Origin: Candidatus Cloacimonadaceae bacterium
GTDB taxonomy: Bacteria > Cloacimonadota > Cloacimonadia > Cloacimonadales > Cloacimonadaceae
NCBI GenBank assembly: GCA_030693415.1
Contig: JAUYAR010000140.1
Location: 1 to 38,237, forward strand
DNA: 38,237 nucleotides
Reading direction: 5' to 3'
Made by a program: the position numbers and the translations under genes. Numbering within the stretch: position 1 is the stretch's first letter; every line of letters starts with the position of its first letter. Shown piece after piece: positions 49 to 29,538 of the stretch. The notes beneath the pieces were generated by a model that ran no database searches, was not told the origin of the DNA, and saw nothing but the letters and a program-made list of their open reading frames with translations.

Positions 49-137
49 TGGCTCTCAGTAGCGGAACGAGTGGCTCTATTTTTTGGAGGAGTGGCTCTCA
101 TCAAGCGGAATGGGTGGCTCAGTTACTCCGGAATATC
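49..137. mobile_element. Insertion-sequence end with repeated GGCTC motifs (IS21-like terminal repeats)
   Basis: Two imperfect direct repeats of about 28 bp occupy 49-77 and 92-120. Each has the pattern TGGCTCTCA, then GCGGAA, then GAGTGGCTC or GGGTGGCTC. The tract ends in TCCGGAATATCCA near 137. Multiple terminal repeats of this GGAAT..GGTGGCTC style are characteristic of ends of IS21-family elements; that assignment comes from recall of the motif style, not from a search. No transposase is visible, so only the extreme end would lie in the window, with the body further left. The tract immediately precedes a truncated helicase-like reading frame, so it probably marks an insertion or a deletion scar. 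Confidence 0.45.
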
Positions 138-272
138 CAATTGAACAGAGTTTATGATTCTAAGACTGAGGTCATCATCTATGATTATGTAGATCAGGAA
201 GTTCCGGTTTTGGCTGCTATGTACCAAAAGAGAATTAAAGGGTATTCTGGAATTGGATATTGTTTTAAGTAA
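138..272 (+). pseudogene. 3' remnant of a helicase-like gene
   Basis: A plus-strand frame ending at the TAA at 270-272 encodes about 40 residues after the insertion-sequence end. They include IIYDYVDQEVPVL and MYQKRIKGYSGIGY. The pattern YDYVD..VPVL..M..KR.KGY..IGY resembles the extreme C-terminus of large DEAD/DEAH-type helicases seen in bacterial conflict and restriction loci. That match is from memory and is not confirmed. No start codon or ribosome-binding site precedes it, and the frame upstream runs into the insertion-sequence repeats, so this looks like the surviving tail of a disrupted gene. The following 273-427 shows no convincing gene or RNA. Confidence 0.45.
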
Positions 273-427
273 CATTTTGTTTGAATTGAGCATCTTAACC
301 AACTAGTCGTGTATATTCAATAGACAACACAGGTTGTGACCCACGCTTTTTCTGCATTAGATCAGTTTGCCACAAATCGTGTTTTAAATTCGATTACAAA
401 AATATGGTGGAGTAGCTAAGTTCCTTA

Positions 428-1765
428 TTATTCAATAAATATTTCAATCTCCCAAAGTCCAAGTGTTTTCATTACTGAACTGTAGATACATGCAGAGTTT
501 TCATCTGAGTTCCTCTCCCAAGGGGTATTGGTGCAAACTTCAAGTAATCCACTATTTTCCTTTAGTAACTCACAAGCGCCTATTAATGGACATGATGACT
601 CAATAACATTCTTTGTGTCAGAAATGAAGGAAAAGAAATGTCGGAGTGTTGAGAAAAACCCCTTTGCAATAAAAAAGTATTCATTAAAGAACTTATCATT
701 ATTGTCACCATCAAACACGCCCATTTCGCTAATTGGGTTTTCAACTATGATTGGACATAATCGTTTGATAAACTGATAGAATTTCGCTTGATTAATTACT
801 AAATCACATAGTATATCCCTCTTTTTTTCTCTAATGTCAAAGAGTAATTTAGCAACTATCAAATATGCATCAATAGCCATAATTAGATGAGAATTGAGAT
901 TGTTAGCTTTCAAGTTTTTGTGTTTATCAAGGATATCTAAGTAGAACTCATGTTTGGTTTTTCCTATTGATGATTCTATGGCAAAAACGAATTCAACAAT
1001 TTCAGAATATTGTACAGAAATATCTATTCCTGTATCTTCGTATTTTTCAAGAAGTGCATATAACATTGAAACTGGGTAAAGAGTATCCAGCGCAATATCA
1101 AGAATAATAAACTTGCACTTGTCATCAGCTTTAACTTGTTTGAAATCAAATAGATAATCCACCATAAAGTATGGTAGTAATGGTGGAACCTTAACCACAT
1201 CTGGATGCCCTTTGTCTAATAAGATGCTTTCCGCAATTCTTTGAGCAATATAAGCTTGGCATTCTTGTAAATCACTAATACCGATAAAGTATCTACGTTC
1301 ACCTAAAAATGCTGAAAACTGGATATCTACATAATGCTCCTCAATATTTATAATCCCGATGTCATGAACATCAATTTGTTTATTATTGAGTATACCAGTT
1401 GATACGACTTTACAACTAAAACCTCTTTCTAATGGCGCTATAGCCTTGATTTGATCGATAAGTCGCCCATTATCGGGAGAGTCGAAATACAAAAAGAGGT
1501 TTCTATGCTTGTCATAATTATCTGATTTGATGATCGAAACTTGCCTATCAGTTATAATAGTATCTTTAACAAAGGAAAGTACATCATCGATAAAAGAGAG
1601 AAATCCCATTACTGACGAACAATAAGCGAAATCCTGGATAAAATGTATATATTCATGTAAAAAAACTGGATAATCTTGGTATGATAGCCTATCATCTTTA
1701 TCAAAGGCGATCTCAAAGAGGTGCATAGTGAAAGACAATGGTCTATATTGAGCTATGGTTGGCAT
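428..1765 (-). CDS. Unrecognised 445-aa protein with an HExxH metal-binding motif
   Basis: The protein is not assignable to a named family. The clearest landmark is HEYIH at residues 37-41, within FLHEYIHFIQ. This is an HExxH zinc-metallopeptidase-like motif in a hydrophobic helix near the N-terminus. A third zinc ligand could not be identified with confidence, so protease activity is only a possibility. There is no signal peptide or clear membrane segment, so it is probably cytoplasmic. The ATG start is supported by a GGAG seven bases upstream. It lies on the same strand as the RT-nitrilase gene and 258 bp downstream of it, so it may be a separately expressed or loosely linked member of the same defence cassette. 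Its AT-rich composition matches the neighbours. Confidence 0.8.
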   Translation of the reverse strand: MPTIAQYRPLSFTMHLFEIAFDKDDRLSYQDYPVFLHEYIHFIQDFAYCSSVMGFLSFIDDVLSFVKDTIITDRQVSIIKSDNYDKHRNLFLYFDSPDNGRLIDQIKAIAPLERGFSCKVVSTGILNNKQIDVHDIGIINIEEHYVDIQFSAFLGERRYFIGISDLQECQAYIAQRIAESILLDKGHPDVVKVPPLLPYFMVDYLFDFKQVKADDKCKFIILDIALDTLYPVSMLYALLEKYEDTGIDISVQYSEIVEFVFAIESSIGKTKHEFYLDILDKHKNLKANNLNSHLIMAIDAYLIVAKLLFDIREKKRDILCDLVINQAKFYQFIKRLCPIIVENPISEMGVFDGDNNDKFFNEYFFIAKGFFSTLRHFFSFISDTKNVIESSCPLIGACELLKENSGLLEVCTNTPWERNSDENSACIYSSVMKTLGLWEIEIFIE

Positions 1766-2023
1766 AATTTACTCCTACTAAGATTTCTAACCTATTCATA
1801 CAATCTTCTTACTATCTAATCATGCTCTGGATCATTTACGCTAAATGACCTAATGTAGGTTTCAAATCTGTCAATCATTTCCGACTTTGATTGGTTTAAT
1901 ACTGCTATCAAAAGTGCCATATTGATAGTCTTCTATATTAAGTACATTGCTAATGAATGCATTCATAAGATTTCAGTATTTTTTGAGGAATTCGAGTGTG
2001 ATTGCATGCCAATATTCACTACT
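1766..2023 (-). other. 258-bp gap downstream of the RT-nitrilase gene; possible micro-ORFs
   Basis: This is the longest gap inside the accessory minus-strand block. It contains a perfect 14-bp palindrome, ATGAATGCATTCAT (1953-1966). It also has two overlapping minus-strand micro-ORFs. The more gene-like one runs from ATG at 1920 to TAG at 1816-1818 and encodes 34 residues, beginning MALLIAVLNQ and ending NDPEHD. Neither has a strong ribosome-binding site. It could be decayed coding sequence, the leader of the HExxH gene, or an RNA connected with the reverse transcriptase. No rho-independent terminator was recognised. Confidence 0.3.
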
Positions 2024-5000
2024 TCATCTTGCAGGTGGGGTTTTCCAACTCATTCTATGTGGAGAAATCACAGGAGGTGGAGCATTCCACCGATTAAGGA
2101 AATCTCCGATATCATCAATTTCAAGAAAAGCAACCGATGCCTGTGGTTGACCATGTAGGTGAAATATCTCTTTGTTGTAATCTTCTCTAAATGGGGCATA
2201 TGCGCTACTCCCACCATAGCTGCCATTGTTTGCAACAATTACCATTTGATACATGTGATAGTGTAGAGCTAGTGCCATTTGGTCATAAGTCTTTACGTCT
2301 TGATTGAAAGAGGGAATTATATACACATCAGATTCCTCTCTTAGATCTGCTGCGAGTCGAATATCAGTTGCATCGTAGCAAATTGACGCAGTTAGTTTCA
2401 ATGGTTCTTCCCCTTCTTTCCACAAATAATGCACTATCCATTGACACGGTCTGAAAGGTCTGATATGAGTTTGAGTGCGATTGAACCTAATAATTTCATG
2501 AGGTGATAAGTTACCCTTACCTTGTCGTCTAATAACAACCTGAAGTCCTCCCTGTGGTGTCTGAGTTGGAATTATCCATAACGCAGAATTTACAAGTGGT
2601 TGATTGGGCTCTGTTTCAGTATAATTCATCCCAGCTAATATCACGGTTTTGCGGTCTCGTGCAAACGGAACAAGACTTTGAAATATATCCTGGGGATGAA
2701 TTGATAACTCTGGGAAAATCAGTAAGTCTAAACGTGAGCTACGACTGCGATGTGTCTCTCTCAAGTCTAATAATTTTTTCACAGCAGCAAGAGAAGCGAC
2801 TAAATGATTTCTATGACAACGGCGAACCATAGAATCAGAAAATGTTAAATCAATATTGTTAAAACAATCGCTATTCGGAATTACCTTTTGCACAATACAA
2901 GCTCGTAATGGCCGAGTTCCATCTTGTAAACTTCTGAAAGGTGGAGCGCTAACCGGCATCATAAGAACCGATGACTGATGGCCAAGCTTATCTTTAAGGT
3001 TTTTGAACCTTAAATCAATCTGATGTAGTGTTTCGGAGATACCTTTATTTATCCAAACATCAAATGAACTTTCATTACAACCAGGCCATTGTAATAGAGA
3101 GAAGAGTAATTTCTCTGTCCAATCAGATATCGGAAGCCAATCGGCTCCGAAAGCTGAAAAACCACTATATAACCCATGATCTCGTTGATACCAATGGCTC
3201 TCTGGGATACGATAGATAGGAAGATTTTCCTTCCAAGACAATCTCTTAACACTTCTTGAATAGTCATATTGTCTTGTTAGCAAAAAGCGGATAAGGTATG
3301 CAAGATTAAATCGCCATGAATCTTCAACTGTACACCAAAGGGGTGGTGTGTACATTGAATTGATGTCATGTGTTAAGTTTAAATCAACATCTATCTTTTC
3401 AAAGTACTCCGTATTGTCATTATTGAAAGCTATGTTGACTGCACCAGGTGAGATCACGTATTTTCTATTTGTCTCAAAGCTCATATACAAATTTAGAAAT
3501 AGAATGGAGAACTTTAGAATCGATAACTCATTAATGCACTTTATAGATTCAGAGTTATCTGAAACAAAGTTCATTAAGTTTGCATAACCTGGGGTGACAC
3601 TAACTTTATCATTTCGCAGCAAATCAGATGATCTTTTATTAAGAGTTAAATTTGCCCCGGGTTGTGATAGCAATTCTAATGCGAAAGAAGGATCTCTTTC
3701 GAGGATATGTTCAAATCTGTTCGTTGTAAGAAGTGGTGTAATTAACTCTCTGGCATCACCTTCATTAAGGTGTGATCTTCTGGCAAGTATTGCATACATT
3801 GCAAAATCACGATCAGACTTTCCAATGCTGTTCCCTTGAAGCAATAGAACCATTCTTTTATAGTGCTTTGTTTCTTTGGTTTTCCCTTCTCTACTTATGG
3901 GAACATCGTTTGGGGAAAACGCAAGTAAAAATAGAAGAATCTGTTGCTTTAAATACCATGGAATTGATTGGGTTGGTAAATTTAAAATACGAATTCCTTC
4001 TGTTTTTAGTGCTTCTCGATATTTTGATATGTCAATATTTTCAGGAAATGACTCTTGATTCTCAATAAATCCAGTTTCAGAAGCACCAGCTCTGAATATT
4101 TCTGATAGGCAATACCAAGCAACTCTACGTTTGCTCTTACGTCCACCACCTTTGAGTGTGTATTGACGAAGAAGATGGAGTACAGTATTCAAAATGGCCA
4201 CATCGGGACAAATATCTAGCCCCACTCTTAATAATCTAACATTTGAAGGGTCTTCAATCCAATTTTCTATCAAACCTAATGCGAATATTTTCGCTTCTTC
4301 ATCTAATTCCTGTCTTGTAAACCTAACAACGCTATCTTGATCATTAAGTTGTTCTTCACAGAAACCGCATTGTTCCACCTTATCAAAAAGCAAAAGTCGT
4401 AGTGAACGATAAGTGCTTCTATAACGATGAGCAGAAAAACGGGCAACAGTATCATCGTGCACATCTGGTACTGGTGCAAACTGAAAAGATTGATTATCTA
4501 GACGCCCATCGGAAAATCGAGATTGAGAACGAAGCAGTCCTTGTATAGCAGATAGAACCTCTAATCCCCCCTTTGAATCAAATCCTCCAGAAATCCCATG
4601 TTGAATTTGCTGCATTCGCTTACTTTGTCTTACTAATGGACGTTTGTCTCCGAAAACATCTATAACTTTAGTTTTGTCAGAAGATACCTTCAATCCTGAA
4701 GCATGTATGTTTAAACCATCCTCCAGCCAAGAAACGATATCAGCTTTAATACTATCTAGACTGGGGGTTTCTTCAACGGATAACACAATTCTGAGATCGT
4801 CAACATACCGGCATACATCTAAAACCTTTATGTCCGGTTTGATAAGAGTATTGAAAGATGCTCTAAGAAATTCATCAAAATCTTTGAGTATAACATTTGA
4901 TAAAAAACCGCTTGCAACAAGACCCTGAGGTAAGGCTATGTTTATAAATCCTTCTAATTCTGAGCATTTAATGTAATCCTCTACACATTGAATGTTTGAC

Positions 5001-5734
5001 TTCTCTTTATTCCATTCCCAGTTAAACACTCGCCTTATTAATGCTATGAATTGAGGATCAGCTTCGGCACCTAACAATCCGATTATTTTATTGTGAAGCA
5101 ATTCTGGACTCACTCGATCATAGAATTTTGAAAGATCTGATTGAACGATGTAGATTCTTCTATCCCCTTGATGCTCACTTGCGACAACATCAGATCTTTC
5201 AATGAATTTATTATAATCCTGGTAATAGGAACGGTAAAGCTTTGTAGAACCCCAATGATGAAGTAATTCGCCATTATCTCCAGTGCTACAATACAAGCGG
5301 TTTCCATAAGAAATTGTCTGCTTTCTTTCTTCAGACTTATCTAATGAGACTATTGGGCTTCCTTGTAATTGTTCCATTTGATCAGCCAAGCATAACATAA
5401 TGGCAGTTGCCAGAACTTGATCTTCGATGCAAACATGCGCTAAAGGCCTTAGTTTTGTTGAGATGTTACTTCTAGGCACCCACTTGTTATGCTCATTAAT
5501 ATGCCAACACTGGCTTTTGGGTGCAGGCACAATTTTTAGGGGTTCATTCCTCCAAGTAGGAATTCTATCAGATAACTGATTAATAAAATTAGGTAAGTCA
5601 ACCGATGCCAGATCAAGTTCCAATGAATCAGCATACCAATTGTGGTAGCGAATATATGAAGCTGTTTTCTTCCAGGCTTGAATGAGAAACTCAGGTCGTT
5701 TAAGGTAACTAATACTTGGGATTGGATGTTGCAC
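2024..5734 (-). CDS. Defence-associated reverse transcriptase fused to a nitrilase domain (DRT1/UG1-like)
   Basis: This 1236-residue fusion has an N-terminal reverse transcriptase. Motif A is SDLSKFYDRVS with catalytic D200, motif B is ALPQGLVASG at about 268-277, and motif C is YVDD at 310-313. A helical region of unknown role spans roughly 400-920. The C-terminus is a carbon-nitrogen hydrolase domain (about 940-1215) with all three catalytic positions: E1009 in FPE, K1073 in GKGNLSPHE and C1119 in SICYDATD. RT-nitrilase fusions of this size are known as class 1 UG reverse transcriptases, including DRT1, which act in phage defence. The nitrilase substrate is unknown. The start is GTG at 5732-5734, four bases after GGAGG. 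It lies 69 bp downstream of the 545-aa gene, in the same orientation as BREX. The exact UG subgroup cannot be set from the sequence alone. Confidence 0.88.
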   Translation of the reverse strand: MQHPIPSISYLKRPEFLIQAWKKTASYIRYHNWYADSLELDLASVDLPNFINQLSDRIPTWRNEPLKIVPAPKSQCWHINEHNKWVPRSNISTKLRPLAHVCIEDQVLATAIMLCLADQMEQLQGSPIVSLDKSEERKQTISYGNRLYCSTGDNGELLHHWGSTKLYRSYYQDYNKFIERSDVVASEHQGDRRIYIVQSDLSKFYDRVSPELLHNKIIGLLGAEADPQFIALIRRVFNWEWNKEKSNIQCVEDYIKCSELEGFINIALPQGLVASGFLSNVILKDFDEFLRASFNTLIKPDIKVLDVCRYVDDLRIVLSVEETPSLDSIKADIVSWLEDGLNIHASGLKVSSDKTKVIDVFGDKRPLVRQSKRMQQIQHGISGGFDSKGGLEVLSAIQGLLRSQSRFSDGRLDNQSFQFAPVPDVHDDTVARFSAHRYRSTYRSLRLLLFDKVEQCGFCEEQLNDQDSVVRFTRQELDEEAKIFALGLIENWIEDPSNVRLLRVGLDICPDVAILNTVLHLLRQYTLKGGGRKSKRRVAWYCLSEIFRAGASETGFIENQESFPENIDISKYREALKTEGIRILNLPTQSIPWYLKQQILLFLLAFSPNDVPISREGKTKETKHYKRMVLLLQGNSIGKSDRDFAMYAILARRSHLNEGDARELITPLLTTNRFEHILERDPSFALELLSQPGANLTLNKRSSDLLRNDKVSVTPGYANLMNFVSDNSESIKCINELSILKFSILFLNLYMSFETNRKYVISPGAVNIAFNNDNTEYFEKIDVDLNLTHDINSMYTPPLWCTVEDSWRFNLAYLIRFLLTRQYDYSRSVKRLSWKENLPIYRIPESHWYQRDHGLYSGFSAFGADWLPISDWTEKLLFSLLQWPGCNESSFDVWINKGISETLHQIDLRFKNLKDKLGHQSSVLMMPVSAPPFRSLQDGTRPLRACIVQKVIPNSDCFNNIDLTFSDSMVRRCHRNHLVASLAAVKKLLDLRETHRSRSSRLDLLIFPELSIHPQDIFQSLVPFARDRKTVILAGMNYTETEPNQPLVNSALWIIPTQTPQGGLQVVIRRQGKGNLSPHEIIRFNRTQTHIRPFRPCQWIVHYLWKEGEEPLKLTASICYDATDIRLAADLREESDVYIIPSFNQDVKTYDQMALALHYHMYQMVIVANNGSYGGSSAYAPFREDYNKEIFHLHGQPQASVAFLEIDDIGDFLNRWNAPPPVISPHRMSWKTPPAR

Positions 5735-5803
5735 ATAACCTCCAAAAATGCAATAAGATTTCTTTGCCCAAATGGAAATGTTTTAATCGTGAATTCGAGT
5801 AGT

Positions 5804-7441
5804 TCACTTTTTAATTGTTTCCCATCTTTCATAGGGCCAGACAGCTGTCTTATATTCTGAGAGCTTTGAATGAATATGTTCTGCAACTGTGCTATAGGTG
5901 GATTCAAACAATTTGCACAGATACAAGTTAATGAAGTACTTGGGTAATGTGATATAATTCATGTTGAATTCATATTCTGGATTCCATATATACTCTTCTT
6001 CTTCTGCAACAGCAATATATGGATATAGAACTGTATCAGTGATAGTACTTACAATATCTTTCCATCTTTCCAAATCTTTGTCTTCCAACCCAGTAATTCG
6101 AACAATTGATAAAAGGACAAGCAAGAAAAACTCAACAAATTCCGCAGCAACTCTTGATGCATCATAACCACAATAAAAATACTGCTTGTAATCAAAACAT
6201 AGACCTTGAAGTTTTTTTCTTGAAATCGAGTCATCTTTAAGCAATAGATAGCATAATACGGTTAACAAGTTCTGATATACTGAATCCAAAGTAAAGAAAT
6301 TGAATACAGTTGTGCTGTTTTTATTGATAATCAATTTCTGTATTAGGATTTCTGGTTTACTAATTGCATCAAAGGTACTATTGCAAAAGATTGACCTTAT
6401 GGGCAGTGGTATTAGATTCAAATCACATTTATCTCCATCAACTTTAGTAATCTCTAATACAAGGCTTGAGATAGTAATGTAATCTTCTGGGAATTCTAAT
6501 CCAGTAAGCCATTTTGATATGTTATCACTTGTGAGATGGTTGGCAAATGCATTGATGAAATCTAAGTATATGGGACTAAGATTTGAATGAGGATTGTTAC
6601 TCTGTGGCTTTGTTTTCTCAAGGATTATGCGATTAATAAGCTTCTTGCCACCATGGTTCCAATGAGTTAACAATAATGAATCAGCAACCTCAAAGTTAAA
6701 CCATTCTAATGCTTCAGGATGATATAGATTCTCAATTACATAGGCTATAATGAAAGCGATTTCTTTTTCGGATAAAGTATCCAATTCCTTTATGTCATCC
6801 TTATTTAAATGTATTTCCAAGCCATAGAAGTCAATTAGTATTGCAAGGATAACTGGAGGGATTTTGGGTACCCATCTAAAATCTAGTTTCATTTTCTGTG
6901 AAACAAGCATAATAATAGAGTTATATGATAATGCATGAGAGTCTAAATATGCTGTACTTCGAAACAACCGGCTCCATTCATCAACAGTTTTTGGGTTCTT
7001 ATCAATATTTGTATTTTGCTTATAGAGTACTTCTGAAAGAGAATTGATTAGAATAAGGAAAATGCTATTGCTTCTATCATTTCCAATTCTATCAACAAAC
7101 ATATTTACCATTTCGCTCTTATAATCACCTCTGTAACTACTCCTTAGGATTAATATGAATATGTTTCCAAGAGCAATATGGTTATCTATGAAATTATCAG
7201 TTAAGGCTAACAATATGTCAGAGTAATTTTTTAACACTAGTTCTGACTCATCATTTTCGTCTTCTAAACATATATACCCCAGATTGTAATCGAAAGGATA
7301 TCTGTAGGTCACCTTATCATGTATAGAAAACGAAATGTTGTTACTAATTGGCTTTTGAGATGCTAACTCAATTATGATATCCCATTTTAGCATTGTATTG
7401 TTAGCCAGATATTCGGATAGTACTCTATAAAGATTATCCAT
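5804..7441 (-). CDS. Unrecognised 545-aa, mostly helical protein of the RT cassette
   Basis: No catalytic motif or named domain was recognised. The protein is rich in Leu, Ile and Asn, predicted largely helical and without a signal peptide. Short hydrophobic stretches (for example FFLLVLLSIVRI) look like buried helices rather than clear transmembrane spans. It could be a scaffold or sensor subunit, but that is speculation. The ATG at 7439-7441 overlaps the end of the preceding gene by 8 bases, and GAGG lies seven bases upstream inside that gene. Translation is therefore probably coupled to the 208-aa gene. The RT-nitrilase gene follows 69 bp later. The conserved-looking tight order argues for joint function with the RT, though this rests on one locus. 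Confidence 0.75.
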   Translation of the reverse strand: MDNLYRVLSEYLANNTMLKWDIIIELASQKPISNNISFSIHDKVTYRYPFDYNLGYICLEDENDESELVLKNYSDILLALTDNFIDNHIALGNIFILILRSSYRGDYKSEMVNMFVDRIGNDRSNSIFLILINSLSEVLYKQNTNIDKNPKTVDEWSRLFRSTAYLDSHALSYNSIIMLVSQKMKLDFRWVPKIPPVILAILIDFYGLEIHLNKDDIKELDTLSEKEIAFIIAYVIENLYHPEALEWFNFEVADSLLLTHWNHGGKKLINRIILEKTKPQSNNPHSNLSPIYLDFINAFANHLTSDNISKWLTGLEFPEDYITISSLVLEITKVDGDKCDLNLIPLPIRSIFCNSTFDAISKPEILIQKLIINKNSTTVFNFFTLDSVYQNLLTVLCYLLLKDDSISRKKLQGLCFDYKQYFYCGYDASRVAAEFVEFFLLVLLSIVRITGLEDKDLERWKDIVSTITDTVLYPYIAVAEEEEYIWNPEYEFNMNYITLPKYFINLYLCKLFESTYSTVAEHIHSKLSEYKTAVWPYERWETIKK

Positions 7442-8060
7442 TCAAAACCTCATTAATGCTTTTTGCCCCACTTAACAGATTTATGTATTTGGAACAAATC
7501 ATTGCACATTGCAATTCATCATTTACAGGTACTATATCTACTTCTTTTATATTTCCGATACTATTCGTTACCACTATAGGTTTCAGCAGTGATGAAGATC
7601 CATCACTTGTATCTCGTGAAAAATAATATCTATTATGAAATTCATCATTTGAGGCAACGAAATCTACAAAATTTGGATACAACTTTTTGGGAGGCATAAT
7701 TCCATTCAAATATATCGGATACCTAGTGTATAAATCTTCCAGTTTAGTTAGAACACTGCTATTGTCTTTTATAATCTGAGTTTTTGCACGTTTCGGATAT
7801 CCGCATATCGTAAACTTTACAGTAAAGTCAGATTCAAATAGATATCTTCCTATCGCATTAATAAATGCCCTTTGATCCTCGAAAACCATACTTAGCGCAT
7901 TAGTAGCATCATGCTCTTGAATTGGTCCGATAAAATAAGGATCAAAAATAATTATATCAGGGCCAAGGAAATTGAATAAATCGTAGAAAATATCACTCAA
8001 TGCCATGTATGCATCATTATCAGAGAAATAGTTGCTTTTATACCATGTAATAGGTTTCAT
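7434..8060 (-). CDS. Unrecognised 208-aa protein, possibly PLD-like fold
   Basis: The N-terminal half contains a hydrophobic strand followed by acidic and aromatic residues (IIIFDPYFIG, about residues 36-45). The C-terminal half contains EFHNRYYFSRD. A DPYF strand followed later by F-H-[DN]-R-Y-x-[FIV] is reminiscent of compact phospholipase-D-like modules found in defence proteins. No full HxK motif is present, so this is only a suggestion and catalysis should not be assumed. The start lies 5 bp after the stop of the 291-aa gene, with a weak AAGG upstream. The 3' end overlaps the 545-aa gene by 8 bp. These couplings put it in the middle of a three-gene unit. Confidence 0.72.
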   Translation of the reverse strand: MKPITWYKSNYFSDNDAYMALSDIFYDLFNFLGPDIIIFDPYFIGPIQEHDATNALSMVFEDQRAFINAIGRYLFESDFTVKFTICGYPKRAKTQIIKDNSSVLTKLEDLYTRYPIYLNGIMPPKKLYPNFVDFVASNDEFHNRYYFSRDTSDGSSSLLKPIVVTNSIGNIKEVDIVPVNDELQCAMICSKYINLLSGAKSINEVLNG

Positions 8061-8065
8061 ACAAT

Positions 8066-8941
8066 TTATACCTTATTTGTTCTATGAAATGAACGACCAT
8101 ATGCATCAATCATTGTGTTAGAAATGATATTCATATTTAAAACAACATCTTGTATAAGAGTAAAAGAAATACATCTCTCAAGTTTTTCATTGATATAATA
8201 ATAGAGGTTTCCACTTGCAATAAAGTCATTTAAGTCCGCTATGAATAAACCTGAGCTTGTGTTTATTGCACCTTCTCCCTTGTACTCATCTTCATCATTA
8301 GTGATCTTAATTGTATACTTTTTATTGTTGTCAAAACTCTCTTGCACAAATCCGATTATCTGTTTGCTTCCTTGTCCCTTTACTGAAGCAGTGTGTACTC
8401 CTCTAAAGGAAATGTCCTTTTGTCTTTGGAGATTTATAGCGATTTGATTAGATTGGATGTAAGTTAGATATTGTAGAGGAGTAAGAATTCCGATTGGTTT
8501 GATGAAATCCGTATCTTCACTAGCGTAACCACACAACAAATTCCAATTCTCTTCAATCCGCAACTCAATAGGAAAATAATCCGAAACATCACAAAAATAA
8601 GATACGGAAGACAAAATAAGATTCGAATCTTGCATTTCTTTTCGAGTTACATTGGGTACTTGAAAAGTAACATCGTTTCCATTAATATCAACTGGAGTTT
8701 TATTGATAATAGAATAGAAAATAGCTTCAGCTTCCTTATCATTGCAAAATGCTACATGTTGATTAATACTCAATTGTCCTGATAATCTATGTGCTTTACC
8801 TTTCCAGAACCAATATACGTCGTCATTCTTACAAAAATCATTAATGGGTTTTCTATATAGGAAAATAAGTCTCTCTTCATTGGAACCTATTAATTCTTGT
8901 GTTAACAGGAGTATTACATTCATATTGGGTTCAGTTTTCAT
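8066..8941 (-). CDS. Unrecognised 291-aa protein, first gene after brxL
   Basis: No recognised domain. The sequence looks globular, mixed alpha/beta and soluble, with no signal peptide, membrane span or cysteine cluster. The ATG at 8939-8941 is preceded by GAGG about ten bases upstream. The gene begins 72 bp after the brxL stop, and no terminator-like hairpin with a T-run lies between them. Read-through from the BREX operon is therefore possible. Only 5 bp separate it from the next gene. It is visibly more AT-rich than pglX, pglZ and brxL. That fits a cassette acquired separately and appended to BREX. Confidence 0.75.
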   Translation of the reverse strand: MKTEPNMNVILLLTQELIGSNEERLIFLYRKPINDFCKNDDVYWFWKGKAHRLSGQLSINQHVAFCNDKEAEAIFYSIINKTPVDINGNDVTFQVPNVTRKEMQDSNLILSSVSYFCDVSDYFPIELRIEENWNLLCGYASEDTDFIKPIGILTPLQYLTYIQSNQIAINLQRQKDISFRGVHTASVKGQGSKQIIGFVQESFDNNKKYTIKITNDEDEYKGEGAINTSSGLFIADLNDFIASGNLYYYINEKLERCISFTLIQDVVLNMNIISNTMIDAYGRSFHRTNKV

Positions 8942-9013: not shown

Positions 9014-11068
9014 TTATGATACCTTCACGTACGTCACTTCAAAAGCCCGGCACAGTCTATACCGTTGATTTCTATTTGTAATCGCAAAGGCATCTTTATA
9101 GTCGTACTGCTGAAAGATGTCGAGACCTCGACCAAGGATTATCTTCCAGCCGGTATCGGTTTGGATATAGCGGTCATGAATGGATTCATCGTATTCATAA
9201 GTGAAGAGGATACCCATCGAGATACAGGACTCCTGGATTTGTTTCAGGAAAGAATCCTGCTGAGAATCATCAAAGTCACTGGGCTTGGTAAACAGATGCA
9301 CTTCCACCTCATCAGCATCAGATTTTCCGAGAGCGATAGTCTCCATCAGTTCCATCAGGTTCTTGGACTGATAGAAGGCACTGATGTAAGGGTCTTTGAT
9401 TTCCAGCTTAGCTGCTCCCTCCAGATACTTCCCGAAAAGCTTCTGATAAGAAATGCCACTTTGGTTTTCTTTGATGACGATATTCCCTGCTTTGAGAATA
9501 TGCGTTTCTGGCGCATCTTTCTGCTTGGGTTGAGTATTTTCACCAGATTCGGGCTTGGACGCCGTGTTGGGCACTAACTCGTCCTCTGTTTCGGGAATTT
9601 GAGCATTATAGTAAAGTGGATATTGAATCTCTTCCGTGGTTTTCACGAAATACAGCTTTTGCTCTTTATCAGAATAGGCAAAACGCACCGGCTCATAAGT
9701 AGCGTCAATTCGCATAAGCTGGTCTTTGACTCGTTTCCTGCCTTCCATCGAAAATTGCAGTAATTCTTCAATTTCTTCCTTTGAAGCTTTTTGATTGGGA
9801 TAGATTACCTTCATCAACCCGGAGAAGGTCTTTTGCACACCATCCCGATCACGGGTAGAGATATCTGAAACGAGGTCAAAGTGCTCTTTGTATAATTGCG
9901 AATAATCCGAATTACGAAAAGCTCTCAGTATCTCTGCCAGATAATCCACTACAAACCCATAGCCATTAGAGAACATCTCTCCTCTGATAATTGGCACTTC
10001 CCAGCCCGGAAGATAGCCATGTAGCCTATCCAGAAAAGCTGAGTCATAGTATTTTTCTGGTAGTTCGTCAAAAAGGTTTGAGTTCTTCAGCATATAAGCT
10101 ACATTATGCCGTGTATTGCCTACAAATGTCATAGAGGCTTCTGCACCCAATGTTTCAATGCCTCTGGAGAAAGTCTTATTTGCCATATAATTTTTCATGA
10201 TGTCCACCAAGGCTTTATCCACAGTCTTTTTCTTTCCGGCAAATTCATCAAAAGCAACTACATCCCAATAGCCTACCAGTCCGATTCTGCCATTGGAGTT
10301 ATTCACGAATAGCTTAGGAACAGACACTTCTCCACCTGAGATCAATATCCCATGAGGAGAGAACTCAGAATAGATATGTGATTTACCGGTACCCTTAGGT
10401 CCGAGCTCTATCAGATTATAGTTTCTTTCACAATACGGCACCAGGCGTGTGAGCTGCATTAGTTTCAATCTGCGGCTCATGGTTTCCGGGTTGAAGCCGA
10501 TACTCTGGATTAGCAGGTCTATCCACTCATCAGAAGTGAATTCCGTCCGCTTTTCCAAGAAGGTATCCATATCAAATTTGGATAGTTGCACTGGTTTAAT
10601 AGAACTCATTATCCAAGGAACGCTGTTTTTATCCTCAGTATAGACGTATTCAAGCTCTGAGATGCACCAGACACCACTCACTAAGAGTTTTGGATGTTTC
10701 TTTATAGTATCAGAATCGACCACTACTTTACTGATACCCAGGCTGGAAAATGAAGCCTCGTAACAGTCGTTTTTATCATTCAAGGATACGGAGATTTTAT
10801 CAATGACCTTATGCCTGCCCTTTTCCTTGATGATGGATTTGATCAGTCCGGCTTCGTTGCGATGCACATAATGCTTGGCAAGGATATCTTTGACTGTGTC
10901 GATACCAGCCAAAATGCTTGCTTCATCCGAAGTGGCACAATACTGACCCAGCAGATATTCCAGCACATAGGTTGGCACAATGGCATTACCCTTCACGGTC
11001 TTCACAAGGTCTTTCCGTACAACTAAGCCTGGAAAGTTGGCATTGATTTTGTCATCAAGTTTGCTCAT
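9014..11068 (-). CDS. brxL: BREX protein BrxL (Lon-related AAA+ core) with a C-terminal MIT_C-like domain
   Basis: BrxL is the AAA+ ATPase that distinguishes type 1 BREX; known homologues form ring-shaped DNA-binding assemblies needed for phage exclusion. Counting from the upstream ATG (11071), Walker A is GPKGTGKS at 224-231 and Walker B is VVAFDEF at 271-277. A polar linker rich in Glu, Pro and Thr spans about 490-525. The last ~150 residues hold IHDR (631-634) and GWKIILGRGLDIF (641-653). This is the signature of the PLD-like MIT_C domain of MITD1-type proteins, not a Lon peptidase. Tandem ATGs lie at 11071 and 11068. The second is preferred because AAGGAG then sits five bases away. The gene follows pglZ by 9 bp. 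The BrxL identity is firm; the MIT_C assignment is by motif. Confidence 0.9.
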   Translation of the reverse strand: MSKLDDKINANFPGLVVRKDLVKTVKGNAIVPTYVLEYLLGQYCATSDEASILAGIDTVKDILAKHYVHRNEAGLIKSIIKEKGRHKVIDKISVSLNDKNDCYEASFSSLGISKVVVDSDTIKKHPKLLVSGVWCISELEYVYTEDKNSVPWIMSSIKPVQLSKFDMDTFLEKRTEFTSDEWIDLLIQSIGFNPETMSRRLKLMQLTRLVPYCERNYNLIELGPKGTGKSHIYSEFSPHGILISGGEVSVPKLFVNNSNGRIGLVGYWDVVAFDEFAGKKKTVDKALVDIMKNYMANKTFSRGIETLGAEASMTFVGNTRHNVAYMLKNSNLFDELPEKYYDSAFLDRLHGYLPGWEVPIIRGEMFSNGYGFVVDYLAEILRAFRNSDYSQLYKEHFDLVSDISTRDRDGVQKTFSGLMKVIYPNQKASKEEIEELLQFSMEGRKRVKDQLMRIDATYEPVRFAYSDKEQKLYFVKTTEEIQYPLYYNAQIPETEDELVPNTASKPESGENTQPKQKDAPETHILKAGNIVIKENQSGISYQKLFGKYLEGAAKLEIKDPYISAFYQSKNLMELMETIALGKSDADEVEVHLFTKPSDFDDSQQDSFLKQIQESCISMGILFTYEYDESIHDRYIQTDTGWKIILGRGLDIFQQYDYKDAFAITNRNQRYRLCRAFEVTYVKVS

Positions 11069-11077
11069 CATAGCTCC

Positions 11078-16600: not shown

Positions 16601-17274
16601 TCTGCAAAGACCTCATCTTTCTTTTCAGAAATATAGTATTGGTACAGCCAGCCGATTACTTCCACATCTTCGCAGGTTGATTCATCCATAGCATCACGTA
16701 TCTGAGCCAGGATAGAGTGCTCACTGAAGAGGTCATCAGGTATCAAGAGTAGTGTCCAGTCTGAGACATTGGGAAAGAGGAAGGGCATTATCTGGCTATA
16801 ATAGTTACATACAGAGATCAGGATTAGCTTGTAAGCCTCGCTTTGAGGATCAGTATTATGGAAAGTACTGCCCTCAGTACCTGAAAGCAGAGCTTGTATT
16901 CTTGTCCATCTATCGCCGCTAATCAGGCTGGGGTCTACATGTCCCAATCTGGCTTCTGCCAATATCTCTGGCTGAGTATTTCCGGGCAGAGGTGAGACTA
17001 TGCCAACCGGAGTAAAGTGGTTCATATCCATGAAACGCATGGCAGTGAAACGATTGAACCAGAGATAAGCTACCCGCTCTGTAAGCTCTCTATTACCAAA
17101 CTTTTTTAGCTCTCTTTCAAAAGCCTGGTATTGAGATTTGGTTGAGCTATAGGTGCTGGCATAGCTATCAGGAGTAAGGATTTCATTAAGCTTGATGCCT
17201 ACTTGGTTTATCAGGTAACGTCGGGCTTCCTGTGCAAAACGTTTGAGCCTGGCATTGGTCTGTTTATCTATCAT
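13603..17274 (-). CDS. pglX: BREX adenine-specific DNA methyltransferase PglX
   Basis: PglX methylates a non-palindromic adenine motif on host DNA, marking self in BREX. The SAM-binding motif DPCSGSGH is at residues 302-309 and the catalytic N6-adenine motif NPPY at 477-480. The C-terminal half (about 600-1223) would carry target recognition, so the recognised site cannot be predicted. The length of 1223 residues is normal for type 1. The ATG at 17272-17274 shares ATGA with the stop of the upstream nuclease gene, showing translational coupling. Inside the coding sequence, 14378-14431 carries three degenerate 11-bp repeats and an 11-bp inverted repeat. They encode a low-complexity RESRENHEGNEE stretch near residue 960. 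Confidence 0.94.
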   Translation of the reverse strand: MIDKQTNARLKRFAQEARRYLINQVGIKLNEILTPDSYASTYSSTKSQYQAFERELKKFGNRELTERVAYLWFNRFTAMRFMDMNHFTPVGIVSPLPGNTQPEILAEARLGHVDPSLISGDRWTRIQALLSGTEGSTFHNTDPQSEAYKLILISVCNYYSQIMPFLFPNVSDWTLLLIPDDLFSEHSILAQIRDAMDESTCEDVEVIGWLYQYYISEKKDEVFADLRTGKKVQSSDIPPVTQLFTPHWIVKYMVQNSLGRLWLNSHPMSPLMAKMEFYVKDETESEKDTLIVKSPEEIKLCDPCSGSGHILTYAFDLLYEIYSEMGYDPIEIPRLIINKNLYGIEIDERAGELAAFALTMKARSKDKLWFTRKDIAPKICVLHNVKLQANEVETYMERCGRDIFTLNLEKTLYQFETADTLGSLIVPAEQDIQSTYDTLSQKNLGEDIFITPIHDKVLEILEQADYLISKYQVVVTNPPYLGTSGFSESIQTFFKTCYPNSRSDFFAMFMERCLSMTKDMGYIAMINMQSWMFLSSYEKLRIHLVKNYEFITMAHLGPRAFDSISGEVVSTTTFVLQNKKPGNDKGTFFRLIAGHSEEEKRQACLVAITNPDCEWLYHCATSDFAKIPGVPIAYWLSAKVKEIFVSSKPLGDIASPRQGLATADNDRFLRQWFEPSLNRIGFSMNSRQEARESGKKWFPCNKGGSFRRWYGNNDYLVNWENDGFELRNFTYDNGKLRSVIRNPNYYFLEGWSWSTISSSKASFRFSPKGFMFETKGSVCFPKEIEEFNSVGGFLNSVLICDLLLVLSPTLDFHEGPLSKLPYMHTGSYARVDCIVEKCVQVVKDDWDSYETSWDFQQLPLLGLRGERLAVRECYAMQRDKWIVAALRIQTMEEENNLIFIEAYGLQDELSPEVPLKEITLTCNPYYRYNADAVSPYSDALYNPGNSQAIPSSDPGITRESRENHEGNEEGSSRFPLNNILEQRLLADTMKELISYAVGCMFGRYSIDKPGLILANQGESLDAYLAKIHPSRFLPDKDNVIPILDSEWFTDDIVDRFKVFLKVTFGEENFNDNLRFIEDAIDNDIRAYFIKDFYNDHLKRYKKRPIYWLFSSPKGSFNALIYMHRYTPDTLSIILNGYLREYLEKVKAKIAQLQHLVTSPELSERDKILSNKEIVRYTAMLTELEDWESEVLLPMAEKRIEIDLDDGVKVNYAMFDGALKGIRF

Positions 17275-18422
17275 GGTAAATCCTGATGCAATTGAGTTTC
17301 AAGGAATCTTTGCATATCTTCCTTGCTGGGTAGCTCCAGCAGATATTTTGAAACAAAGAGTTGGTTATCCATGCCAGCCAGAGCATACTCCACGAGAGTG
17401 GAATCTTTATCTGTACACAGCAAAATGCCAATGGGATCGCTATCACCCGGATGCATTTCATTCTTTCGGTACCAGCTTACGTAGGTGTTTAGTTGACCGA
17501 TGTTCTCGTGATTAAACTCGGCAAGCTTTAGTTCCACCAGAATATGGCATTTGAGGATGCGGTGGTAAAATACCAGATCAATATAGTATTGGGTTTCGCC
17601 AATTAGGATTCGCTTTTGTCTGGCTTCAAAGCAGAAACCATGCCCCAGTTCCAGAAGGAATTCCTGTAGTTTCTCGATGAGTTGATCTTCCAGATGGGAT
17701 TCGCTCATTACCTCTTTGGCTTTGAGCCCCAGAAATTCAAAAACATAGGGGTCTCTAATGGTGCGGGAGGGATCAAAGACTTCCACAGTATTATTGGTTT
17801 GCTCGACGAGTTTCTGTTTGTTTGTGGAAAGCCCGGTTCGCTCGTAGTAGAGAGATTTTATCTGACGCCTAAGCTGTCTTACTGACCAATTACCTATTAT
17901 ACACTCGTGTATATAAAACACTCTCATTGTATCATTATCAATATCCAATAGCTCAGAAATATGAGAAAATGATAAAAGGCTAACTAACTGCCTTGCCTCA
18001 ATCTGCAATTGTGGAGACGGTGTCTCCACAATCCTCGATTCATTGCCTACATCATGTTTCGTGTCAAAATCTACAAGATCTATAAGTGCTTTCCCCAAAA
18101 GCTGTTGTAATTGTGGATTCACTGTCTCCACAATCTGAGGGAACACTCTATAGAATTTGGCATATCGATAAAGCTCTCGTTTGTCAGTTCGTGGAACATC
18201 AAGTAAGAGTAGCTCTTCTGCTAAGCGTTCAAACAGCTTATCTCCATATTCAGCCCGGTCAGCTCCTCTCAGTTCGTATTCGCTGATGTAATATCCGATT
18301 AACCAATTCCTGATAGTAAGAGTGATATTGACAGACTGAGTCGCCTGACGGTTCAACTCCTGATGAACATTTTGAATCTGAGCAAGTAAGTCAGGAAAGC
18401 TAAGCGAGTCCTTCGTTATCAT
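17271..18422 (-). CDS. DUF1016/YhcG-family PDDEXK nuclease
   Basis: The family combines an N-terminal DUF1016 helical domain (about 10-200 here) with a C-terminal PDDEXK nuclease fold (about 225-360). Visible active-site residues are D282 in YYIDLVF and E297-L-K299 in VELKL. Members are commonly found in type I restriction and BREX loci, where their role is not settled. The 383-residue length is typical. The gene sits between brxC (9 bp gap) and pglX (4-base ATGA overlap), so it is expressed with them. Two copies of a palindromic sequence around GTGGAGAC/GTCTCCAC lie inside the gene (18008-18032 and 18110-18134). They encode similar VETVNPQLQ and VETPSPQLQ segments. Confidence 0.9.
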   Translation of the reverse strand: MITKDSLSFPDLLAQIQNVHQELNRQATQSVNITLTIRNWLIGYYISEYELRGADRAEYGDKLFERLAEELLLLDVPRTDKRELYRYAKFYRVFPQIVETVNPQLQQLLGKALIDLVDFDTKHDVGNESRIVETPSPQLQIEARQLVSLLSFSHISELLDIDNDTMRVFYIHECIIGNWSVRQLRRQIKSLYYERTGLSTNKQKLVEQTNNTVEVFDPSRTIRDPYVFEFLGLKAKEVMSESHLEDQLIEKLQEFLLELGHGFCFEARQKRILIGETQYYIDLVFYHRILKCHILVELKLAEFNHENIGQLNTYVSWYRKNEMHPGDSDPIGILLCTDKDSTLVEYALAGMDNQLFVSKYLLELPSKEDMQRFLETQLHQDLP

Positions 18423-23655: not shown

Positions 23656-24159
23656 CTAACATAGTAGTCTGTAACAACCAATCCTATTCAAACTCCGGAG
23701 TTGACCCAATATACCTTTCTGGACTTTTCTGCCGATTTTGGGCACGTTTTGACGGGAAATAACCACGTATGTGTACTGCCTTAGATCTACAACCTCTATC
23801 GATGCCAGTGCTTCCAGATAGATATAGACCCACTGTCTGGATTTGCCGATGACTTGAGCAATCTCTCGGATAGATTTATATCTACCTTGTTCCAGGATGT
23901 CTAACAGCTGATGGGCATCTGCTATGCTGAATGTCCAACCCTTGTAATGCTGATAACCAATCCTGGCTTGGTAGCGATTGGCTCGGACGTAAATGGGAGG
24001 ACTATCTTCTATCGGTTTGATCGCCTGGCTTTGGAGCAGTTCCGGCAATAGCTGATCTATTATGTCAGCTTCAATACTGGTCAACTGAGCTATTGTATCA
24101 GCATTAAACGGTCGATCATACTGATTGATGAAGTTGAGGATAAGTTCTTTGTCCGACAT
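23656..24159 (-). CDS. Winged-HTH protein downstream of the transposition ATPase
   Basis: The 167-residue protein seems to contain two DNA-binding folds. An N-terminal winged-helix-like region spans about 1-50. A classic helix-turn-helix sits at about 94-118 (YKSIREIAQVIGKSRQWVYIYL) and is followed by a wing-like VVDLRQYTYVVISR. It is probably a regulator or accessory factor of the transposable element. The gene begins 7 bp after the ATPase stop, with GAGG five bases before the ATG, so it belongs to the transposition operon. No named family was recognised. Confidence 0.72.
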   Translation of the reverse strand: MSDKELILNFINQYDRPFNADTIAQLTSIEADIIDQLLPELLQSQAIKPIEDSPPIYVRANRYQARIGYQHYKGWTFSIADAHQLLDILEQGRYKSIREIAQVIGKSRQWVYIYLEALASIEVVDLRQYTYVVISRQNVPKIGRKVQKGILGQLRSLNRIGCYRLLC

Positions 24160-24166
24160 ACTGTCC

Positions 24167-24877
24167 TCAATTATCCAGATCGGCTTGGGATACTACTTCA
24201 AGGTTCTTATATCTTCCGATCTCTTCCACTGAGCGGATAAGCTTCATGGCTTTGCGGACATTGCCGCAAGAGTGGAAGTGGACATACTCAACAATATCTG
24301 GGTGGAACTTGATCTCCAGTATCTCGCCGCATAACTGGGCGATGTCCTTCTTGGGTAGGTCTTGGAATTCATAGAAGAAATTGCATCTATCAAAGTAATA
24401 CTCATTGATCTGATTGAGCTTATCTTTCGCACTCTGCATCCCGACCAGGATTACTATCGCTGTGGTCTCATCCACGATATCCCTGATCGCACCTAAGAGC
24501 TGGGGATGCCGGAAGGCATAGTCTATCTCATCTACCACTATGATCGTATCACGATGGTCTTCCAGGAGCGATAAGCACAGCATAAAGAGGTCATTGGCTG
24601 TTCCGTATGGTACGTACTCTCCCATGCCAAATCTCTTGTATAAGGCTAAGAGTAGCTTGGAGGCAAACGCCTTGGGTGTGGTAGTGGCTTCCAGTCTGAG
24701 ATAGACATAGCCTTTACTAAAAGCGATCCGACTGGCATACGTGGTCTTTCCCAGTCCCGGCCTGCCATACAGCAACCCGAGTCCCACCATCTCCATCTTG
24801 GGTCGGTTTAGTAGGTATTCTATGCATTTATCTGCAGCGACTACGTTCTGAGTTCTGACAAGTTTTCCCTGTTTCAT
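24167..24877 (-). CDS. MuB-like AAA ATPase, transposition target-selection protein
   Basis: This is a 236-residue AAA ATPase with Walker A GRPGLGKTT at 38-46 and Walker B IIVVDEID at 112-119. Size and motif layout match MuB/IstB/TnsC-type transposition ATPases. These bind target DNA, activate the DDE transposase and confer target immunity. It follows the transposase gene by 9 bp and has a strong ribosome-binding site (AGGAGG) before its ATG. Its position next to a Mu-type transposase makes the MuB role likely. IS21 IstB is the alternative but is usually paired with a different transposase. Confidence 0.85.
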   Translation of the reverse strand: MKQGKLVRTQNVVAADKCIEYLLNRPKMEMVGLGLLYGRPGLGKTTYASRIAFSKGYVYLRLEATTTPKAFASKLLLALYKRFGMGEYVPYGTANDLFMLCLSLLEDHRDTIIVVDEIDYAFRHPQLLGAIRDIVDETTAIVILVGMQSAKDKLNQINEYYFDRCNFFYEFQDLPKKDIAQLCGEILEIKFHPDIVEYVHFHSCGNVRKAMKLIRSVEEIGRYKNLEVVSQADLDN

Positions 24878-24886
24878 GATTACCTC

Positions 24887-27499
24887 CTAATTGGTTATCC
24901 CGATTCGTTTGAGTAGTTCCGCTCTGGAGAGGTGTGCGAATGGTGCCGGCTCTTTCCCAACCTCAGCTATTATCTGATTGTTCACTTCTGGCAACTCAGT
25001 TGTTTTGGATATGGCATCGTTTTGATTATGCTCTTCTGCCGTGACTGTCGAGATATTACTATCCGATGTTACAATCGTGTCAGTCGGGCTTGGATTATCA
25101 GATGTCTCGCACTGATCAACCGAGCTTGTTTGTTGCGATTTGTAATACTCTCTTGCGGTCTTACTAAATGCGATTTTCATAGATATGGGCATTTCACCAT
25201 TGCTGTCATTATAATCGAGTCCTATCCTATCGAATGATTCTTTGATTTCCTGTTCTATTATGCGGTTTATCTCTAATTCTGCCAGTCTCTCTTTCTCCTT
25301 AGCATCAAGCTGTTCCCGCTCTTCAGGACTCAGCATATCCGGATGCTTCGGCAGGTTCAACATCGCCTTTCTGGTCATCTCATCGATGATCTCATCGCTA
25401 TCCTTGGGTGGTGCTTCCAGCATGGGAGGACTGCTGAAGATTGCTCTGGCACCCTGATCCTCAAGCTTCTCCTGCTTGGCTGTTGAATTGCTCAAGATTC
25501 TATCAACTGCTTTCTGGGAGTTCACAACCCACTTCTTAGCATTGCGTTCTTTCTCTCGTTTTAAGCCCTTGATCTCATTGTATTCTTTATTGAGTTCCTT
25601 ATGCGAGACTGCCTTATCCATCGAGACTTCAATGAAAGGATGCTGCGTCTTGCGGAGTGCTGCCTGGCAGATAAAGACATCGTTCTTATCATAGACCACT
25701 ATCCATCTGGCATCGCTGTAATCGAACCTGATGATACAAGGCTGCCCCACATGGTTCACCATGTCCCGATGCCAATAGACTTTCTTATCCAGTCTGATGC
25801 CTTCGCTACGGATATTCTTGCGCTCCATCGCCATCATTAAGAAGTTGAGCCTGGATATCTCCACTTGTCGATTCTCAGCTATTCTGGCGGCACTGAAGAC
25901 CTCATAAGGAGTCCGTCTGTTCAGTGAGGTATGTGGGGTCTCTCCATAGCAGAATCTCACATAGAAGGCTATCATCTGCATCGTCTCTTCAATGGTGGGC
26001 GGTTTACCGGTATAGAGCTTCTTTGCCCACTTCTCGTTGCGGTGTAGCACTGAGGGCTTATCGGCAATCGATGCTCCTCTGAAGGTGGTAATGAACCTCT
26101 CAAACTGTTCCTGGAAGGTCTTGAAGAAGCGTTCGATCACCTTGGCTTTGGCATTGTAACTCTCTGCGAATCTCACTCCGATATTAAGCCGGGGGAAGAT
26201 GCCTCCCAGTTCCTTGTTCAGGTCATGCTCTTCCCAGCTCTCATGAAAGAGCTTGGCTCGGAAGGCTTTGCCATTATCCAGATATACATACTCCGGTAGC
26301 ACTGCCATGATTCCACTATTATTATCTGCGATCTGCGAGCAGTTGATAAAGCCATTACGGAAGGCTGTGAGGATATGCTGACTATCTTCGGTAAAGGCAA
26401 GTGACGCTCCCACCGGATATCTGCTTGCCCAGTCCATCACCATGATCATGGTCATACGTTGCGCTCTTCCGGTCTGAGGATTGAGGATATCAAAGGAGAG
26501 GGTATGTCCATCAGCCACCCATACCTGTCCCACTGTCAGGCTGCTATCATCCCGCATAATGGTCTTGATGATCCTTTCAGATACGAACTTACTGCCATCC
26601 CTGGCTTGATGCCATTCTGCCGGATGCCTGGCTGCCCATTCTTCACACCAGCGTCTGAGCGTGCGTTCATTGGTCTCTGATTCTATTACTTTGTTTCTGC
26701 TCATCTGTTTGAGGTTGGTGATGGCAGAGCCGATCTTGATGCGATTGGGATTGAGCAGCAGATGCAGCAGATAGTGCTGTTCTTGAAAGGTGATCTTACG
26801 CTCTTTATACTTGCCCTTGCTCTTATGGATCAGGGCATACATATCAAGCTTGTTTTCAAGGTAGATATTGAGCCATTCTCGCAGTGCCCTCTCTTTTCTT
26901 GGTCCTTTGAGATTGTAGAGCTCCGGCACCAGTCTCTTGGTGTTATAGTCACTGGTGATGCGTTTCCAGGCTAATGTCCTGGAATCTACTCCATGTAATC
27001 TGCGGAACACCTCTTGGCAGAACCTCCCATAAAGCTGAGCTTCATCCTTGAATAGCAGCCTTTCCTCTTCCACCGGAGCCAGATCAAGGAATTCACTGGA
27101 GAAGTCGATCAACACATCATTATCTCGTGCTTCATGGATCAGAGTGAGTTTGCGTTCAAAGTCCAGATAATCTTCATAGGTCTCATAGACTGTCTCGGAC
27201 TCCAGATTGTCTTCTGAACTATCAGCTTTGGCATTATATTGCTGGCTGTAAGCTAGCATAAAGCTATTGTCGGCATCGTCAGCAGTGGCAGTGTTATTGC
27301 TATTACCTTTAACATTAACATCACTATTCCCACTTACCTTGCTTAATCCAGCTCTTACCTCCGGTACCACTATGCATCTGCCACCACTCTTGATCTCAAG
27401 CTTCAGTCCTTGGCTTTCCATCAGTTCTTGCAGTTCATTCAGCTTATTCCGATATTCTCTCAGGAACTCCTCGGTAGGTCTGCCACTATAAGGAAACAT
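24887..27499 (-). CDS. Mu-like DDE transposase (MuA-type)
   Basis: This 870-residue integrase-fold transposase has a catalytic DDE triad at D330 (WVADGH), D408 (VYLDNGKAF) and E456 (KVIERFF). It has a long N-terminal DNA-binding region, a beta-barrel-like segment after 540 and a charged C-terminal tail of ~180 residues that would contact the ATPase partner. It is longer than phage Mu transposase (663 residues), mainly through the low-complexity N-terminus and the tail. The ATG at 27497-27499 has GGAGG five bases upstream; a longer frame to 27571 lacks a good site. It overlaps the upstream HTH gene by 14 bp. It is apparently intact and would act at the repeated TGTCCAAGCG sites. Confidence 0.88.
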   Translation of the reverse strand: MFPYSGRPTEEFLREYRNKLNELQELMESQGLKLEIKSGGRCIVVPEVRAGLSKVSGNSDVNVKGNSNNTATADDADNSFMLAYSQQYNAKADSSEDNLESETVYETYEDYLDFERKLTLIHEARDNDVLIDFSSEFLDLAPVEEERLLFKDEAQLYGRFCQEVFRRLHGVDSRTLAWKRITSDYNTKRLVPELYNLKGPRKERALREWLNIYLENKLDMYALIHKSKGKYKERKITFQEQHYLLHLLLNPNRIKIGSAITNLKQMSRNKVIESETNERTLRRWCEEWAARHPAEWHQARDGSKFVSERIIKTIMRDDSSLTVGQVWVADGHTLSFDILNPQTGRAQRMTMIMVMDWASRYPVGASLAFTEDSQHILTAFRNGFINCSQIADNNSGIMAVLPEYVYLDNGKAFRAKLFHESWEEHDLNKELGGIFPRLNIGVRFAESYNAKAKVIERFFKTFQEQFERFITTFRGASIADKPSVLHRNEKWAKKLYTGKPPTIEETMQMIAFYVRFCYGETPHTSLNRRTPYEVFSAARIAENRQVEISRLNFLMMAMERKNIRSEGIRLDKKVYWHRDMVNHVGQPCIIRFDYSDARWIVVYDKNDVFICQAALRKTQHPFIEVSMDKAVSHKELNKEYNEIKGLKREKERNAKKWVVNSQKAVDRILSNSTAKQEKLEDQGARAIFSSPPMLEAPPKDSDEIIDEMTRKAMLNLPKHPDMLSPEEREQLDAKEKERLAELEINRIIEQEIKESFDRIGLDYNDSNGEMPISMKIAFSKTAREYYKSQQTSSVDQCETSDNPSPTDTIVTSDSNISTVTAEEHNQNDAISKTTELPEVNNQIIAEVGKEPAPFAHLSRAELLKRIGITN

Positions 27500-29505: not shown

Positions 29506-29538
29506 AACCCTGCTCAGCCTCAGTTTATCGAGAGGTAA

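What the first reader, a model, noticed from the sequence alone, without database searches (positions are those of the whole stretch)
5804..8941. Three coupled unknown genes between brxL and the RT-nitrilase
The 291-, 208- and 545-residue proteins match nothing I recognise. They are joined by a 5-bp gap and an 8-bp overlap, the hallmark of a complex or pathway. The 208-aa protein shows weak PLD-like features (DPYF strand, FHNRYYF). They look more AT-rich than the BREX genes, so they may have arrived with the RT. This trio is the best candidate for an undescribed defence module.
Basis: inference. Interest (0 to 1): 0.75.

Follow-up and report, generated by a model that had tools for sequence, protein, structure and literature searches.

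The report
Orphan three-gene operon in BREX slot
Three tightly packed bacterial genes of no known family sit in a spot beside a BREX anti-phage system where related bacteria carry other virus-defence genes, so they are probably an undescribed defence module, but no relative, structure or experiment yet shows what they do.

Summary
Three genes on the minus strand encode 291, 208 and 545 residues. They lie between brxL and a DRT1 (RT-nitrilase) gene and are joined by a 5-bp gap and an 8-bp overlap. They are AT-rich like the RT and unlike the BREX genes. No family in Pfam, NCBIfam, PADLOC or PHROGs, no PDB chain, and no plasmid, phage or same-phylum genome gave a credible relative of any of the three. 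Published work shows DRT1 defends as a single gene, and five DRT1 homologues on plasmids (one truncated) lack the trio, so the trio is probably not a DRT1 component. New evidence comes from BREX loci in relatives: the slot directly after brxL carries PsyrT-like, SIR2-HerA or Mokosh-like genes. The trio fills the same slot, so the best reading is an autonomous defence cargo module acting as one complex. The PLD-like hint for the 208-aa protein rests on a motif resembling BrxL's own C-terminal HRD domain. It is not significant by profile and could not be tested by structure, because single-sequence models were too poor. Mechanism is therefore inference. The genes are real orphans and a good experimental target, not a demonstrated system.

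The parts
8066..8941 (-). first gene of the trio, 291-aa orphan, acidic (pI 5.1), no transmembrane segment
7434..8060 (-). second gene, 208-aa orphan; possible PLD/HKD-like half-domain (IIFDPYF, FHNRYYF, VVTNSIGN), unproven
5804..7441 (-). third gene, 545-aa orphan, strongly acidic, probably mainly helical; one hydrophobic stretch near residues 431-453
8061..8065 (-). 5-bp gap between the 291- and 208-aa genes
9014..11071 (-). brxL with C-terminal PLD-like (MIT_C, HDRYIQTD) domain; its 3' side is the variable slot
2024..5734 (-). DRT1 RT-nitrilase, apparently intact (YVDD at residue 310; FPEL, GKGNL, CYD of the nitrilase part)
428..1765 (-). 445-aa protein with HExxH motif (HEYIH), same base composition as trio and RT; relation to either unknown

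Best explanation
The trio is a self-contained anti-phage module carried as cargo in the variable slot directly downstream of brxL, separate from both BREX and DRT1. Its three products are most likely made together and act as one complex. Shown: three intact coupled orphan genes in a slot that holds defence genes in relatives. Inferred: that it defends, and that it does so as a complex. A guess on top (about 0.15-0.2): the 208-aa protein is a PLD-fold, HxR-type subunit that binds or cuts nucleic acid, while the 545-aa helical protein is scaffold or sensor and the 291-aa protein is a sensing or restraining partner. With no NTPase motif in any of the three, it would be switched by binding a phage product rather than by a motor.
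For: Gene spacing and intact reading frames. In relatives of the same phylum the gene(s) right after brxL are: a PsyrT-like helicase (803 bits) with a PsyrA-like protein and DUF488 genes; a SIR2 plus HerA pair (423 and 545 bits); and a helicase with weak C-terminal PLD similarity matching Mokosh MkoA/MkoC, preceded by a MORN-repeat protein. Plasmid BREX loci also carry unrelated genes in or near this place. A survey of BREX loci describes many auxiliary and backup effectors beside the core genes (PMC12839542). DRT1 is a one-gene system and its plasmid homologues lack the trio (PMC13275509). No P-loop motif was found in the trio.
Against: No homologue of any of the three was found, so co-occurrence cannot be shown and position is a single case. 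Only three of the relatives' slots were informative. The PLD reading fails the profile test, and both structure models are unusable (mean pLDDT 33.5 and 40.1). Passenger genes without a defence role also land in such islands.
Confidence: 0.5

Rival explanations
1. The trio is an auxiliary part of this BREX system, reading through from brxL and reinforcing or regulating it (for example a second PLD-type subunit working with BrxL's own PLD domain).
For: Same strand and only 72 bp after brxL, with no convincing promoter or terminator between; BREX loci often recruit auxiliary effectors (PMC12839542); the 208-aa motifs echo the BrxL C-terminal domain.
Against: Base composition and codon usage differ clearly from the BREX genes. 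None of the other BREX loci examined carries the trio. Type I BREX works with six core genes (literature).
Confidence: 0.2
2. The trio is functionally tied to DRT1, as sensor, regulator or partner of the RT-nitrilase.
For: Adjacent (69 bp), same strand, and third-position GC and codon usage match the RT and the 445-aa gene.
Against: DRT1 defends alone, and only about 18% of drt1 genes have a known partner, the membrane protein drt1b (PMC13275509). Five DRT1 homologues on plasmids lack the trio, including the closest at 43% identity (one of the five is a truncated match, 62% of the query). DRT1 was found in no other genome of the phylum, so co-occurrence is untestable here.
Confidence: 0.12
3. 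The trio are passenger genes of a mobile element (transfer, maintenance or decaying cargo) with no defence role.
For: A Mu/Tn-like transposase set lies upstream in the same island and many island genes are orphans. The proteins have no recognised domain.
Against: All three frames are intact and tightly packed, and the slot carries defence genes in relatives.
Confidence: 0.18

Closest known systems
Auxiliary effectors and defence cargo beside BREX core genes (PMC12839542); in this phylum PsyrTA-like, SIR2-HerA and Mokosh-like genes after brxL
   Same: Position directly downstream of brxL on the same strand, compact gene set.
   Different: None of the three trio proteins is related to those effectors; no ATPase, helicase, SIR2 or recognised nuclease.
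BrxL C-terminal HKD/HRD (MIT_C, PLD-like) domain
   Same: The 208-aa protein has a hydrophobic strand ending DPYF and later an H-x-R-aromatic strand, as BrxL has DPYI and HDRY.
   Different: Profile score within the range of shuffled sequence; acidic residue after H-x-R is displaced by one position; Pfam PLD models do not match.
DRT1 (RT-nitrilase; PADLOC Drt1a)
   Same: Adjacent gene of similar composition.
   Different: DRT1 is complete as one gene; trio absent from DRT1 relatives.
Menshen (NsnABC), a three-gene defence system (named from memory and as a cited reference; the paper was not held)
   Same: Three genes.
   Different: No PADLOC model matched any trio protein. That Menshen's NsnC is an ATPase is memory; no P-loop was found in the trio.

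Membership tests
PLD/HKD superfamily (208-aa protein) | Significant match to a PLD profile | tested here: not met
   No Pfam, NCBIfam, PADLOC or PHROGs match; BrxL-type profile score 0.1 bits, reached by 499 of 5000 shuffles
PLD/HKD superfamily (208-aa protein) | H-x-[KR]-x4-D motif followed by G/S-x-N | tested here: inconclusive
   HNRYYFSRD gives H-x-R but the Asp is one residue late; TNSIGN follows after an extra loop (sequence; HKD pattern scan empty)
PLD/HKD superfamily (208-aa protein) | PLD fold | tested here: inconclusive
   AlphaFold2 single-sequence model mean pLDDT 33.5; PDB fold search gave no significant match
DRT1 system component | Recurrent linkage to drt1 | tested here: not met
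   Absent beside DRT1 in Sphingobium, Sphingopyxis, Pseudoalteromonas, Vibrio and Photobacterium plasmids
Type I BREX core or known accessory | Match to BREX protein models | tested here: not met
   PADLOC and Pfam scans empty for the trio while brxA, brxB and brxL match strongly
Defence cargo in the brxL-downstream slot | Located immediately after brxL, where relatives hold defence genes | tested here: met
   Three of three informative same-phylum loci
Defence cargo in the brxL-downstream slot | Protects against phage | not testable with these tools
   Needs a plaque assay
Menshen (NsnABC) | Homology to NsnA, NsnB or NsnC | tested here: inconclusive
   No PADLOC hit at E up to 1; presence of Nsn models in that library was not verified

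The most novel reading that the evidence does not exclude
The trio is a previously undescribed three-protein, NTPase-free anti-phage system made of three new protein families, with a divergent PLD-fold subunit as effector, carried as interchangeable cargo behind brxL.
Probability: 0.3. Interest if true: 0.7.

Novelty: new member of a known kind. Interest (0 to 1): 0.42.

Why it matters
The slot after brxL looks like a plug-in site for defence modules in this phylum, so orphan genes found there are enriched candidates for unknown systems. If the trio protects, it adds a three-protein system without a recognisable motor or nuclease, and it would make the slot itself a practical hunting ground. 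If it does not, it warns against calling every orphan in a defence island a defence gene.

Tried and rejected
Homologue searches: tblastn against plasmids and phages, including a joined query, gave only chance matches such as BlaR1. Exact-peptide-seed scans of 85,000 genomes and of viral contigs found nothing; these find close relatives only. Whole-genome searches of the 123-125 held genomes of the phylum gave weak hits; those to the 208-aa protein that were inspected were chance matches, apparently to SelD- and NifS-like enzymes and a secreted repeat protein. A hidden link of the trio to other window proteins was rejected. The fold search on the 208-aa model was meaningless, as expected from its confidence, so none was run on the 545-aa model. 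Pattern DPY..H-x-R is rare (2 of 1951 ORFs, the other a BrxL) but was drawn from the protein itself, so it is not independent evidence. Rfam found no RNA in the window.

Full report
What is there. Three minus-strand genes lie between brxL and an RT-nitrilase gene: 291 aa (8066-8941), 208 aa (7434-8060) and 545 aa (5804-7441), in that reading order. The trio is separated from brxL by 72 bp and from the RT by 69 bp, so it forms a unit within a long co-directional run, although the BREX genes are packed just as tightly. No other frame of the region is open over a comparable length.

Composition. The trio has GC 0.32 and third-position GC 0.26-0.30. The RT and the 445-aa gene behind it share the third-position value (0.28). 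The BREX genes have 0.38-0.47 and the flanking chromosomal genes about 0.60-0.65. Codons of the 291- and 545-aa genes fit a model from RT plus the 445-aa gene better than a BREX model (z 2.8 and 3.6); the 208-aa gene is too short to decide (z 0.8). So the AT-rich half, 428-8941, may have come from a similar source. It does not show one event or one function.

Homology. Pfam, NCBIfam, PADLOC and PHROGs gave no credible match to the trio, nor did the PDB by sequence. Plasmid and phage records gave nothing, nor did seed scans of genomes and viral contigs, nor the held genomes of the same phylum. These searches are single-sequence and would miss remote relatives; the seed scans find only close ones. 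The three are therefore orphans within what could be searched, not proven to be unique.

DRT1. The downstream gene is a DRT1, with the RT motif YVDD and nitrilase motifs in place and a solved homologue, 9yfd. Neville and colleagues (PMC13275509) show DRT1 defends as one gene, with drt1b next to about 18% of copies. DRT1 homologues on Sphingobium, Sphingopyxis, Pseudoalteromonas, Vibrio and Photobacterium plasmids have other neighbours and no trio; the Sphingopyxis match is truncated, covering 62% of the query. DRT1 was not found in any other genome of the phylum. A DRT1 partner role is thus unlikely, though not excluded for this lineage.

The slot. Searching the phylum for BrxL's C-terminal domain gave further BREX loci. 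Directly downstream of brxL, relative G038 has a PsyrT-like helicase, a PsyrA-like/DUF488 protein, a second DUF488 protein and a possible dual-OB protein. G094 has SIR2 and HerA genes, the first overlapping brxL by 4 bp. G051 has a MORN-repeat protein and a helicase matching Mokosh MkoA/MkoC with a weak C-terminal PLD match. Other relatives' contigs end too soon or carry no co-directional gene. Plasmid BREX loci likewise show unrelated genes in or near this place. This fits the published account of auxiliary and backup effectors beside BREX core genes (PMC12839542). Position therefore makes the trio a candidate defence module, by guilt by association from few cases.

PLD hint. The 208-aa protein reads IIFDPYF, then FHNRYYFSRD, then VVTNSIGN and a final helix. 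That order resembles a PLD half-domain and, in particular, the BrxL C-terminus (DPYI, then HDRYIQTD), which the BREX survey calls an HRD variant of HKD nucleases (PMC12839542). A profile from 14 BrxL C-termini gives it 0.1 bits, equalled by 499 of 5000 shuffles. A first test with 8 sequences had looked slightly better (third among the 304 sequences scored), which did not hold. The AlphaFold2 model has mean pLDDT 33.5. The hint stays a hint.

Mechanism. The 545-aa protein is very acidic and predicted mainly helical in a poor model, and has one hydrophobic stretch whose meaning is unclear. No P-loop motif appears in any of the three. My preferred model is a three-protein complex, switched by a phage product, with the 208-aa protein as nucleic-acid-binding or cutting subunit. 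The complex is inferred from gene packing, and the roles are guesses.

Verdict. The genes are real and unassigned, in a place where defence genes are swapped. Evidence for function stops there, which keeps the score moderate.

Noticed in passing
window 428-1765: 445-aa protein with HExxH (LHEYIHFIQD) and a C-terminal Cys cluster; one 24%-identical relative on a Hymenobacter plasmid keeps HEYxH and the cysteines; none in the phylum.
   Followed up: partly
window 130-273, + strand: Short open fragment (NIQLNRVYDSKTEVIIYDYVDQEVPVLAAMYQKRIKGYSGIGY) that looks like the C-terminus of a restriction-type helicase, cut by the contig end or a remnant.
   Followed up: no
window 61-120: Two similar copies of GAGCCACTCnTTCCGC at the left end, possibly a transposon end (16 of 100 shuffles have as many).
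   Followed up: no
window 23656-29055: Mu/Tn-like set: transposase of 894 aa, AAA ATPase of 236 aa, two small genes and a LexA-like repressor, upstream of BREX; GGACA-type repeats at 27.9-29.2 kb may be transposase sites.
   Followed up: partly
window 17271-18422: YhcG/DUF1016 PD-(D/E)XK gene inserted between brxC and pglX, PADLOC candidate PDC-S02.
   Followed up: no
L055 2177-6766: PsyrT-like helicase plus two DUF488 proteins and a possible dual-OB protein in one operon after brxL: an enlarged PsyrTA-like cluster.
   Followed up: partly
L062 2690-8872: A 2060-aa protein with an MIT_C (PLD-like) match outside BREX.
   Followed up: no
window 29290-29510: Tandem 7-bp repeats (TCTCAAT) interrupted by TAGTAG units, between the repressor and the glycosyltransferase gene.
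   Followed up: no
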